Shown: in pieces, positions 20,046 through 22,379 of the stretch
Layout: every line of letters starts with the position of its first letter
Numbering within the stretch: position 1 is the stretch's first letter
Source of the DNA: Bacillota bacterium
GTDB taxonomy: Bacteria; Bacillota; UBA994
Reading direction: 5' to 3'
Assembly (NCBI GenBank): GCA_018333655.1
Contig: JAGXTJ010000010.1
Span: 1 to 39,279 of the forward strand
DNA length: 39,279 nt
Notes under the pieces: model-generated
The model's database searches: none
What the model saw: the letters and a program-made list of their open reading frames with translations, nothing else
What the model was told of the DNA's origin: nothing
Translations under genes and position numbers: made by a program

Positions 20046-20076
20046 AGAGAAAATGTCAGAGACAGGGGCGATTTTT

Positions 20077-21264
20077 GTGCCAAAAAAGGTCGTGGCCGTT
20101 ATATTTGAAGGCGGAAGCCCCGCCCACCCGGTGGTGCGCGACTTGGCTGCGGTGCGGGCAGCGGTGGTGCTTGACACCATCACTAAGCTTAGCTCTGTAG
20201 CCGCGGTAGCAAGCATAGTGCTGTCGACTAATTATCCCGCCCTAGCGGCAGAGGCCCGCATACTAGGAGCCATAATTCATAGGCCAGAAGGCGTGTTTCA
20301 CTATGGGCGAGAACTGCAGAAGATAGTGCGCGACACCGGTGCCGAGGCAGTTATCTCCCTAGGTGGTGCGGCCGCGCCCTACCTTACGGTGGCCGAGTAT
20401 AACGTCATGGCCGACAAGCTGCAACAAGAGCAGGGCATAGTGATTACCAACAACCCACAGTCGGCGGATCTTACTGCTTTTGCCCCTGCAGACGCCATCT
20501 TCAGGATTATGCCTCCTGCCGAAGACAATGGTCTCGCTACCTTGCTACGCGACCAGGCGGGTCTAGTGCGTGAGCTGCTGCCCCATTCCCTCGGCGTGCA
20601 CTTTGACCTAGATACCCCGACCGACGCCCTCTTAATGTCTCTTCTGCCTGGCAATGGCCCATTCGTTACGGCAGCACTCCAGGCCCAGAACTGGGATACG
20701 AAGCGGCTTATGGCGGCTCTTTCTCGTCTCGCGGAAACCCATGTGGAGATGGGGCTCATCGGGCGTGTCAGCCCGCAGATCATGGCGCATATCAATAGCC
20801 GCACCTTTGTCAGGCTGCGGGTATTTTCCGAGGAGCGCGGCATGAAGGCCTTAGGCCGAGTAGAGCGCGGGCAGGTAAGAAGTCTAATCGGGTACTTTCT
20901 TGAAACAACCGGCCCAGAGAAGTTTTTCTCTTACTTAAGTCAGACTTGTGACGTCTGTTTTATAGACACGCGCGTCATCTTCGCCCATAGCAAGCTTAAA
21001 GTGAGCGAGGCGGATCGCTTTCTTTCCGACTTAGGTCGCTACGACGAGATAAATGACCCCTACTTAAGGGAGTTCACCCAGGCTGCCGCCGAGTGCGCCA
21101 TTCCCGTAATTCTCGGTGGGCACTCTCTAGTCTGCGGTGGGATGTGGGCCGTGGTTGAATTGCTCGAAAGACCGTCCCCGGTGTCGCAGTCGCGATTCCA
21201 ACCACAGAGTACACAAAGGCGTGCAAAAGAGAGAAAAATAGAACCATCTCGTCCCCCTAAATAA
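20077..21264 (+). CDS. Nucleotidyltransferase-like protein of unknown function
   Basis: A 395-residue protein with signs of a MobA/CofC-type nucleotidyltransferase fold: VVAVIFEGGSP at the N-terminus, alternating strands and helices in residues 1-180, and HFDLDTPTDALLM near residue 180, which resembles the DIDTP-DL motif of CofC-like enzymes. The usual LAGG-GxRMG sugar-nucleotide loop is not clear, so activity is uncertain. The second half is unrecognised. I chose GTG at 20077 because CAGGGGCG lies eight bases upstream; ATG at 20053 lacks a ribosome site. The last 25 or so residues are encoded by a dispersed-repeat-like sequence (from about 21200), so the original C-terminus was probably replaced. 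No promoter is visible between the hpf terminator and this gene. Confidence 0.65.
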   Translation: MPKKVVAVIFEGGSPAHPVVRDLAAVRAAVVLDTITKLSSVAAVASIVLSTNYPALAAEARILGAIIHRPEGVFHYGRELQKIVRDTGAEAVISLGGAAAPYLTVAEYNVMADKLQQEQGIVITNNPQSADLTAFAPADAIFRIMPPAEDNGLATLLRDQAGLVRELLPHSLGVHFDLDTPTDALLMSLLPGNGPFVTAALQAQNWDTKRLMAALSRLAETHVEMGLIGRVSPQIMAHINSRTFVRLRVFSEERGMKALGRVERGQVRSLIGYFLETTGPEKFFSYLSQTCDVCFIDTRVIFAHSKLKVSEADRFLSDLGRYDEINDPYLREFTQAAAECAIPVILGGHSLVCGGMWAVVELLERPSPVSQSRFQPQSTQRRAKERKIEPSRPPK

Positions 21265-21324
21265 ACTCCTTGTTCCTCTCTTTCTTACTCTGTGTACTCT
21301 GTGGTTAATAAACGTTCCTTCTTC
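21200..21324. repeat. Inverted repeat reaching into the end of the preceding gene
   Basis: AACCACAGAGTACACA (21200-21215) is repeated in perfect inverted form at 21291-21306. Similarity continues beyond the 16 bp through purine-rich sequence, so about 35 bp on each side can pair imperfectly. The left arm lies inside the coding end of the nucleotidyltransferase-like gene, the right arm after its stop. Sequences of the CCACAGAG-ACACAGAG type recur between genes in many bacterial genomes as I recall, which I cannot check here. Confidence 0.85.
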
Positions 21325-21449
21325 TCTCTTGCTTCTTAGTTTTGCGTCTTACTTCTTGCCTCTTGTCTCTTATTTCTTACTTCCTGCTTCTTGCCTCCTG
21401 CCTCTTGCTTTTCTCTGTGTACTCTGTGGTTAATAAAAGTTCCTTCTTC
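21290..21449 (-). repeat. Direct repeats flanking a degenerate heptamer array
   Basis: A 35-bp sequence at 21290-21324 recurs at 21415-21449 with one mismatch. The interval holds about 12 degenerate 7-bp units, RRYAAGA when read on the minus strand. Examples are GGCAAGA, AGTAAGA and GACAAGA. The whole region between the stop at 21264 and the GTG at 21570 (305 bp) is occupied mostly by this material and shows no gene. Confidence 0.85.
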
Positions 21450-21569
21450 GTGTCGATGATTGGGAAACGACTTAGCGAAAAAACATTGTAGAAATATGCA
21501 AAATATCCACAAGGAACTGCGTCCATGGCGTGGAATTTAACTAGTAGCGGAGTGGTAGGAGGATGTCGA

Positions 21570-22199
21570 GTGGAGAGAGATAAGGCAGCATTAGTCGAAG
21601 AATGGGTCGCCTCTTTGCAGGGGGTGCAGTCAAACCGGGTAGTGTTTAATGACCAAGGAGAGATTGTAGAGCTACACGTCCTAAGCGACGACAAGCGTAA
21701 CCCTCGCCAAATTGTGCGCGACATCGAGACCTTGCTCCTCGTCAAGCTCGGTATCAATATCGACCACAAGCGCATTAGCGTCGTGCAGTTTGCCAAAGAG
21801 CAGGAGACGGGCGAAGAGCGCGTCACCTTGCACGGCATAAGCTACAAACTACATAAAGGCACAGCCGAAGTGGCAGTCAGCCTCGCTTTGGGAGAAAAAA
21901 TAGCCGAAGTGGCAGTAAGCGGTCCGGCCTCGCGCCAGAACCAAGGGCGTTTAGTCGCCGGCGCCACTTTAGCTGCCTTAAAGAAGTTGCTTTCCGGCAT
22001 GGTCGACTTTGTCGTGGAAGACGTCACGCAGCTTAATTTTGCGCGGGGCGAAGTAGTGGTCGTAGGCCTAAGCATCGTCACCCCTTCTGGGGAAGAAACC
22101 CTCGTCGGGTCTACCTTTGTGAGGGGAGAAGCGAAAGAAGCTGTGGTGCGGGCTACGCTCTCGGCGGTCAATCGCCGCTTTGGGCAATTAATGAGTTAG
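21570..22199 (+). CDS. Conserved-looking protein of unknown function with an internal repeat
   Basis: I do not recognise a named family in this 209-residue protein. Residues about 20-80 form an alpha-beta unit (VVFNDQGEIVELHVLSDD, then RQIVRDIETLLLVKLGI and ISVVQF). The rest holds two similar units of about 60-70 residues, each two or three beta strands and a helix: one around AEVAVSLALGEK...GRLVAGATLAALKKL, the other around VVVVGLSIVTPSGEE...AVVRATLSAVNRRFG. This pattern recalls small ligand-sensing or dimerisation domains. GTG at 21570 is chosen because AGGAGG is seven bases upstream; the open frame begins earlier in repeat-rich DNA. No partner is evident. Confidence 0.65.
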   Translation: MERDKAALVEEWVASLQGVQSNRVVFNDQGEIVELHVLSDDKRNPRQIVRDIETLLLVKLGINIDHKRISVVQFAKEQETGEERVTLHGISYKLHKGTAEVAVSLALGEKIAEVAVSGPASRQNQGRLVAGATLAALKKLLSGMVDFVVEDVTQLNFARGEVVVVGLSIVTPSGEETLVGSTFVRGEAKEAVVRATLSAVNRRFGQLMS

Positions 22200-22204
22200 A
22201 GTTT

Positions 22205-22379
22205 GGGGGGGCGAAAATCACTCTTCGAGCGGAGCGGTCTCCTGTACCCTACTAGCGGAGCGGGGCAGAGAACCGAGCGAAGGGGGTTTTTTTGTGAAAA
22301 AGATGGTTAATGTGCTTACACGTCTAATGGGCGTTGCTGGCGTATGGAAGTGGTAAATCCTCCGCCCCCCCCTTTTTTT
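22205..22379 (+). other. Possible structured RNA element bounded by a 9-bp G/C stem and ending in T7
   Basis: GGGGGGGCG (22205-22213) is the exact reverse complement of CGCCCCCCC (22363-22371), and C8 is followed at once by T7 (22373-22379). Inside is an imperfect long hairpin (22223-22282) with CTTCG/CGAAG at the base, GGTCTC/GAGAACC in the middle and CTG-CCC/GGG-CAG near the tip. A 20-codon ORF occupies the 3' half. The whole could be a long-range terminator, an attenuator or a small RNA. I do not recognise a known RNA family, and c-di-GMP riboswitch motifs are absent. Confidence 0.4.
22294..22356 (+). CDS. Putative 20-residue microprotein
   Basis: GTG at 22294 opens a 20-codon frame ending in TAA. 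It is preceded by AAGGGGG (22280-22286) with a 7-base all-T spacer, an ideal ribosome site. The peptide starts MKKMVNVLTRLMG and ends VWKW; it is cationic and amphipathic with two tryptophans at its C-terminal end. It has no cysteine and no evident signal cleavage site. It may be a regulatory leader peptide, a membrane-acting peptide, or chance. It sits within a G/C-stem-bounded element and 42 bp before the HD-GYP gene. Confidence 0.45.
   Translation: MKKMVNVLTRLMGVAGVWKW

What the first reader, a model, noticed from the sequence alone, without database searches (positions are those of the whole stretch)
22205..22379. A tiny ORF inside a G/C-stem-bounded, T7-terminated element upstream of an HD-GYP gene
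G7CG at 22205 and CGC8 at 22363 are exact reverse complements 150 bp apart, and the C-run ends in T7. Between them lie an imperfect hairpin (22223-22282) and a 20-codon GTG ORF with an ideal ribosome site (AAGGGGG, 7-base spacer). The layout is what a translation-sensitive attenuator or a small RNA encoding a peptide would look like. Chance folding cannot be excluded.
Basis: partly seen in the sequence, partly recalled or inferred. Interest (0 to 1): 0.6.

Follow-up and report, generated by a model that had tools for sequence, protein, structure and literature searches.

The report
Stem-enclosed mini-gene ahead of HD-GYP gene
Just before the gene for a membrane signalling enzyme (HD-GYP type), this genome carries a folded RNA segment that encloses a tiny gene for a 20-residue greasy peptide, and the same unit, absent from the public RNA and protein family libraries searched, sits at the same place across many families of the bacterial phylum, so it is a real and probably undescribed control element and not a chance fold.

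Summary
The G7CG/CGC8-T7 inverted repeat, the hairpin and the 20-codon GTG ORF are all present. In the window alone the fold is no better than shuffles (z -0.46). Comparison settles it. The same unit lies between the same two genes in all 81 sampled loci where the upstream gene is followed by a membrane HD-GYP gene, and in none of 39 where secA or spoVS follows. The outer stem (9-19 bp) is kept while its sequence is wholly replaced between lineages. The inner hairpin shows 97% paired cells with many double changes. The peptide (consensus MxxxxKxLxALxxLxLAGGAxxxW) is under purifying selection (pN/pS 0.32). A model of the RNA core finds one copy per genome, only at this locus, in 54 of 398 sampled genomes. 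Rfam, Pfam and NCBIfam contain neither RNA nor peptide; a limited paper search found no description. Best reading: an intercistronic switch for the HD-GYP gene. Core hairpins gate translation of the mini-ORF; the enclosing stem, followed by a U-tract in over half of the lineages, acts as a wide-loop terminator controlled by that translation. The mechanism is inferred; the peptide may instead be a membrane partner or signal for the enzyme.

The parts
21525..22199 (+). Upstream gene (224 aa, no Pfam or NCBIfam family); conserved left neighbour of the element
   Evidence: homologs in 155 of 398 sampled phylum genomes
22205..22213 (+). 5' arm of the outer stem P1 (GGGGGGGCG)
   Evidence: replaced by unrelated but self-complementary arms in other lineages
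22227..22237 (+). Conserved tandem repeat GAGCGGAGCGG (AGCGR-AGCGG)
   Evidence: invariant or nearly so in most homologs
22235..22238 (+). 5' strand of short helix P2 (CGGU), partner of 22272-22275
   Evidence: helix 1, 67% of cells paired, all four pairs with double changes; weaker than P3
22242..22268 (+). Hairpin P3 (CUGUACC / GGGGCAG, one mismatch here), loop with UAGCGG at 22253-22258
   Evidence: 97% of cells paired; strong covariation; slid controls collapse
22272..22275 (+). 3' strand of P2 (ACCG), just ahead of the Shine-Dalgarno sequence
22280..22286 (+). Shine-Dalgarno sequence AAGGGGG of the small ORF; its AAG also pairs in the local CTTCG/CGAAG helix
   Evidence: SD present in front of the ORF in homologs
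22294..22356 (+). Small ORF, GTG start, 20 aa (MKKMVNVLTRLMGVAGVWKW), stop TAA
22363..22371 (+). 3' arm of the outer stem P1 (CGCCCCCCC)
22373..22379 (+). U-tract (T7) after P1
22399..23694 (+). Downstream gene: membrane HD-GYP protein (MASE9-like N-terminus, HD_5/HD domain), 431 aa
   Evidence: adjacent in all element-bearing loci

Best explanation
It is an intercistronic cis-regulatory RNA for the membrane HD-GYP gene, built around a conserved mini-ORF. Shown: a conserved core (AGCGR-AGCGG tandem, P3 hairpin with UAGCGG loop, short P2 helix) lies directly before the Shine-Dalgarno sequence of a 19-30-codon ORF; a long-range stem P1 encloses core and ORF; the 3' arm of P1 begins a median of 11 nt after the ORF's stop codon, is often followed by a U-tract, and lies just ahead of the HD-GYP start. 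Inferred: the core, by folding alone or by binding a ligand or protein, sets how often the mini-ORF is translated. A ribosome that reaches the stop codon covers the 3' arm, so P1 cannot form and RNA polymerase runs on into the HD-GYP gene. When the mini-ORF is not translated, P1 plus the U-tract forms as a wide-loop intrinsic terminator (or, where the U-tract is missing, as a barrier to translation or a processing site) and lowers HD-GYP expression. The amino-acid-level conservation of the hydrophobic peptide suggests that the nascent or finished peptide also has a role.
For: Strict linkage to HD-GYP: 74 of 74 loci with HD-GYP downstream against 0 of 34 with secA or spoVS; seven further HD-GYP loci all carry it, and of five more secA or spoVS loci none does. 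One copy per genome and never elsewhere in 54 of 398 genomes, as expected for a cis element. P1 conserved with complete sequence turnover. P3 covariation: 112 double-change cells against 29.8 in shuffles, score 0.494 against 0.169, whole structure. T fraction about 0.6 in the first 8 nt after the GC core of P1, falling to about 0.25-0.3 beyond. P1 5' arm 1-3 nt after the upstream stop in several lineages, so the unit is read through from the upstream gene or from a promoter inside it. ORF codon-position differences 165/130/431, pN/pS 0.32.
Against: No expression data. 32 of 70 loci lack a T4 run after P1. The stop-to-arm spacing reaches 37 nt in some lineages, beyond a terminating ribosome's reach. 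No alternative antiterminator pairing was found: the 3' arm does not pair better with its own coding region than with others'. Conservation of the AGGA motif several residues before the stop is not needed for simple ribosome occlusion. A loop of about 150 nt is unusual for an intrinsic terminator.
Confidence: 0.45

Rival explanations
1. The peptide is the point: a small membrane peptide (short basic start, hydrophobic core, AGGA small-residue motif, aromatic or basic tail) that inserts in the membrane and partners with, or is secreted as a signal for, the membrane HD-GYP protein encoded next door. The RNA structures only tune its dose.
For: Peptide conserved at amino-acid level across the phylum; always next to a MASE9-like membrane HD-GYP protein; hydropathy typical of a single-span or mini-signal peptide (sequence itself); C-terminal 3-5 residues vary between relatives.
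Against: Never found apart from the HD-GYP gene or in extra copies, as a trans-acting product sometimes would be; does not explain the large enclosing stem with complete sequence turnover; no Pfam or NCBIfam peptide family matched.
Confidence: 0.33
2. A riboswitch-like or protein-bound RNA: the AGCGR-AGCGG tandem, UAGCGG loop and P2 form a binding site, and the mini-ORF and P1 are only its output stage.
For: Unpaired motifs are more conserved than the stems around them; P2 and SD lie within a few nucleotides, and in one group (L053, L069, L071, L076) the P2 partner lies between SD and start codon.
Against: The motif repeats 1-4 times with variable spacing, unlike a compact aptamer; f66-type and L052-type relatives have a much altered core; the peptide is also under selection.
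Confidence: 0.18
3. Chance fold and chance ORF.
For: In the window alone the fold energy is ordinary, and the simple terminator scan does not flag it.
Against: All the comparative tests above; 0 of 3700 shuffled gaps contain an ORF like the observed one.
Confidence: 0.01

Closest known systems
Leader-peptide (uORF) transcription attenuators, e.g. trp/ilv-type and the cysS or hflX uORF motifs (PMC8632094, PMC11109978)
   Same: Short conserved ORF with its own SD ahead of the controlled gene; terminator-like stem with U-tract in many members.
   Different: Both arms of the stem lie outside the ORF and enclose it together with a conserved upstream hairpin module; no run of regulatory codons; the unit is intercistronic; no antiterminator pairing found.
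odc1 motif, uORF inside a structured RNA (PMC8632094)
   Same: Conserved RNA structure directly upstream of a conserved short peptide ORF, SD partly sequestered.
   Different: odc1 is in alphaproteobacteria, encodes 11 aa and is thought to choose between two start codons; no enclosing long-range stem with U-tract described in the passages read.
Short hydrophobic peptide pheromones (SHP/ComS type of streptococci; from own knowledge)
   Same: 20-30 aa hydrophobic peptides with basic N-terminus and glycine- or aromatic-rich C-terminus.
   Different: No Rgg/RRNPP receptor gene is the neighbour; the neighbour is a membrane HD-GYP protein; enclosed in conserved RNA structure.
c-di-GMP riboswitches (Rfam RF01051 and relatives)
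   Same: Control genes of c-di-GMP metabolism.
   Different: No Rfam match to the element at gathering or relaxed thresholds.

Membership tests
Leader-peptide transcription attenuator | Translated short ORF upstream of the controlled gene | tested here: met
   SD, start, stop and amino-acid-level conservation; translation itself not measured
Leader-peptide transcription attenuator | Intrinsic terminator (GC stem plus U-tract) between ORF and gene | tested here: inconclusive
   Stem with U-tract T4+ in 38 of 70 loci, but the stem's 5' arm lies upstream of the ORF, 150 nt away in the window
Leader-peptide transcription attenuator | Mutually exclusive antiterminator pairing | tested here: not met
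   No own-coding-region pairing beyond that with other loci; other partners not searched exhaustively
Leader-peptide transcription attenuator | Expression of the downstream gene changes with translation of the leader | not testable with these tools
   needs reporter or RNA-seq
c-di-GMP or any other Rfam riboswitch | Match to the family's covariance model | tested here: not met
Known small-peptide family (Pfam, NCBIfam) | Profile match of the peptide | tested here: not met
   (short peptides are hard for HMMER, so a weak test)
Peptide pheromone | Export and sensing of a processed C-terminal peptide | not testable with these tools
   only hydropathy and small residues before the tail are seen

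The most novel reading that the evidence does not exclude
A phylum-wide, undescribed RNA class in which a long-range enclosing stem, conserved in pairing but not in sequence, turns a whole mini-gene into the loop of a terminator, and the enclosed membrane peptide is the dedicated partner or signal of the neighbouring HD-GYP (c-di-GMP phosphodiesterase type) protein, so that one unit both reports on translation or membrane insertion and sets the level and activity of the enzyme.
Probability: 0.25. Interest if true: 0.9.

Novelty: new variant of a known kind. Interest (0 to 1): 0.7.

Why it matters
A regulatory RNA plus a tiny peptide gene is conserved at one operon position across many families of a phylum and is strictly tied to a membrane HD-GYP protein, yet the family libraries searched do not hold it. 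It offers a defined, testable link between translation of a membrane peptide and c-di-GMP turnover, and shows that enclosing stems which keep pairing but not sequence can escape ordinary RNA searches.

Tried and rejected
Chance fold: rejected by comparative tests. Known RNA family: Rfam at gathering and relaxed thresholds, window and relatives, no match. Repeated or mobile element bounded by terminal inverted repeats: rejected, single copy per genome and always at the same locus. Antiterminator between the P1 3' arm and the ORF: no signal. Element accompanying every membrane HD-GYP gene: rejected, paralogs elsewhere lack it (L179-L183). The genome-contig scan with the HD-GYP protein gave only three distant loci and no use. 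RNAalifold on a plain MAFFT alignment of 40 diverse cores gave no structure because of register errors; structure-aware alignment solved this. Weak model hits in G056 and G030 looked like chance by eye (coding-looking sequence, no such ORF or neighbour).

Full report
Observation. The sequence holds all that was described: G7CG 22205-22213, CGC8 22363-22372 followed by T7 22373-22379, SD AAGGGGG 22280-22286, and a 20-codon GTG ORF 22294-22353 with TAA 22354-22356. On this sequence alone the fold is unremarkable (z -0.46, 55 of 200 shuffles as stable), Rfam finds nothing, and the simple terminator scan does not flag it because that scan allows loops of 3-8 nt only.

Close relatives. In the genome's genus and family the same gap between the same two genes carries the same unit in every genome in which the region is assembled (G002, G004, G005, G007). 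Pairing of the G and C runs is kept although their lengths differ, and the ORF keeps its start, SD and stop: MKKVVKVLVSLVGAGYLKW, MKKVMRIVARLLSGGSNFMW, MKKVMRIVARLLSGGSNYIW, MKWLFNFMSLFLGRGGNYKW.

Phylum-wide. The upstream protein (window 21525-22199) has homologs in 155 of 398 sampled phylum genomes. Downstream flanks of most of these were fetched. When the next gene is a membrane HD-GYP gene, the gap holds a 19-30-codon ORF with SD whose product fits MxxxxKxLxALxxLxLAGGAxxxW. When it is secA or spoVS, there is no such ORF. The counts are 74 of 74 against 0 of 34, then 7 of 7 HD-GYP loci and 0 of 5 secA/spoVS loci in a further, more distant batch. In that batch several peptides were recognised only by eye because the scoring rule was too strict for them, whereas the secA/spoVS loci were judged by that rule and the RNA model alone. 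Four loci cut by contig or locus ends also carry the core and the start of the ORF or, for one, a complete unit after a second upstream gene (L063, L064, L115, L136). Shuffled gaps give such an ORF in 0 of 3700 trials, and 67 of the 74 real ones pass the same strict rule.

Selection on the peptide. Over 16 groups of related sequences pooled pS is 0.308 and pN 0.099 (ratio 0.32); differences by codon position are 165, 130 and 431. Pairs are not independent, so this is a strong indication and not a formal test. The window's own peptide is a shortened, diverged member that lacks the LAGGA consensus.

Outer stem P1. In about 70 of 74 loci the region after the upstream stop and the region after the peptide stop share an 8-19 bp complementary stretch. 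Its sequence differs wholly between lineages (GGGGGGGCG here, GGGCCGACA, GGCCGGC, ACCCAAACC and others). In 45 representatives the own-locus score exceeds all 60 shuffles in 35, and usually all or nearly all pairings with other loci. The 3' arm starts a median of 11 nt after the peptide stop (10-90% range 3-20 nt). T makes up about 60% of the first 8 positions after its GC core, against about 25-30% further on, and T4+ runs occur in 38 of 70 loci against 9 of 70 at a control position. Terminator-like character is thus common but not universal.

Core. Between the 5' arm and the ORF lie a tandem AGCGR-AGCGG, a hairpin P3 with UAGCGG in its loop, a short helix P2 (CGGU/ACCG) and the SD. On the alignment of 57 model matches P3 has 97% paired cells, and the whole structure has 112 double-change cells (29.8 in shuffles) and a covariation score of 0.494 (0.169 in shuffles); sliding the partner by one to three columns destroys the signal. 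That alignment was fitted to the model, which leans towards the structure; the ungapped hairpin search shows the same without a model. P2 is weaker (67%). A few lineages (L052/L067; the f66 group L107, L117, L132, L133, L140, L146, L147; L053-type) have altered cores but keep the peptide, and nearly all keep P1.

Copies elsewhere. A covariance model finds one copy per genome, at this locus, in 54 of 398 genomes (43 genera) at E <= 0.001 and none elsewhere. Most of these genomes supplied training sequences, so the informative part is the lack of other places. Paralogous membrane HD-GYP genes elsewhere lack it.

Mechanism. Shown: architecture, conservation, linkage. Inferred: the core gates translation of the mini-ORF; the terminating ribosome covers the 3' arm of P1; P1 with its U-tract otherwise lowers read-through into the HD-GYP gene. 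The main rival is that the peptide is a membrane partner or signal of the HD-GYP protein; both may hold. What argues for a cis role is the absolute linkage and single copy; what argues for a peptide role is the amino-acid-level conservation, above all of the AGGA segment.

Novelty. Rfam 15, Pfam and NCBIfam do not contain the RNA, the peptide or the upstream protein. Searches of the open paper library, and of four structured-RNA discovery papers for secA, HD domain and phosphohydrolase, found no description. Supplementary files could not be read and subscription papers are not held, so an earlier listing there cannot be excluded. It works like a uORF attenuator, but one defining feature (antiterminator pairing) was not found and the enclosing topology is unusual, hence 'new variant of a known kind'.

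Noticed in passing
window 21525-22199: Upstream protein without Pfam/NCBIfam family, found in 155 of 398 phylum genomes, next to secA, spoVS or the element plus HD-GYP. AlphaFold model (pLDDT 87) has a C-terminal pair of beta-beta-beta-alpha modules; best PDB match is LeuA (1sr9, E 1e-5, low TM), with weak matches to cation-diffusion-facilitator C-terminal domains.
   Followed up: partly
L054, L106, L154, L162 and others: A paralog or ortholog of the upstream gene sits directly before spoVS in ten of the first loci fetched and three more later, a second conserved neighbourhood for this unknown protein.
   Followed up: no
L185 (G025:C11:138900-142000): Two membrane HD-GYP genes in tandem behind a single element.
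   Followed up: no
L077 3373-3459: A c-di-GMP-I riboswitch (Rfam, 90 bits) within about 2 kb of the element in one genome, G273.
   Followed up: no
window 21180-21440: Copies of a CTCTGTGTACTCTGTGGTTAATAAA-type repeat and a low-complexity TTGCTTCTTAC-like tract between the gene at 20053-21264 and the upstream gene; seen by eye only.
   Followed up: no
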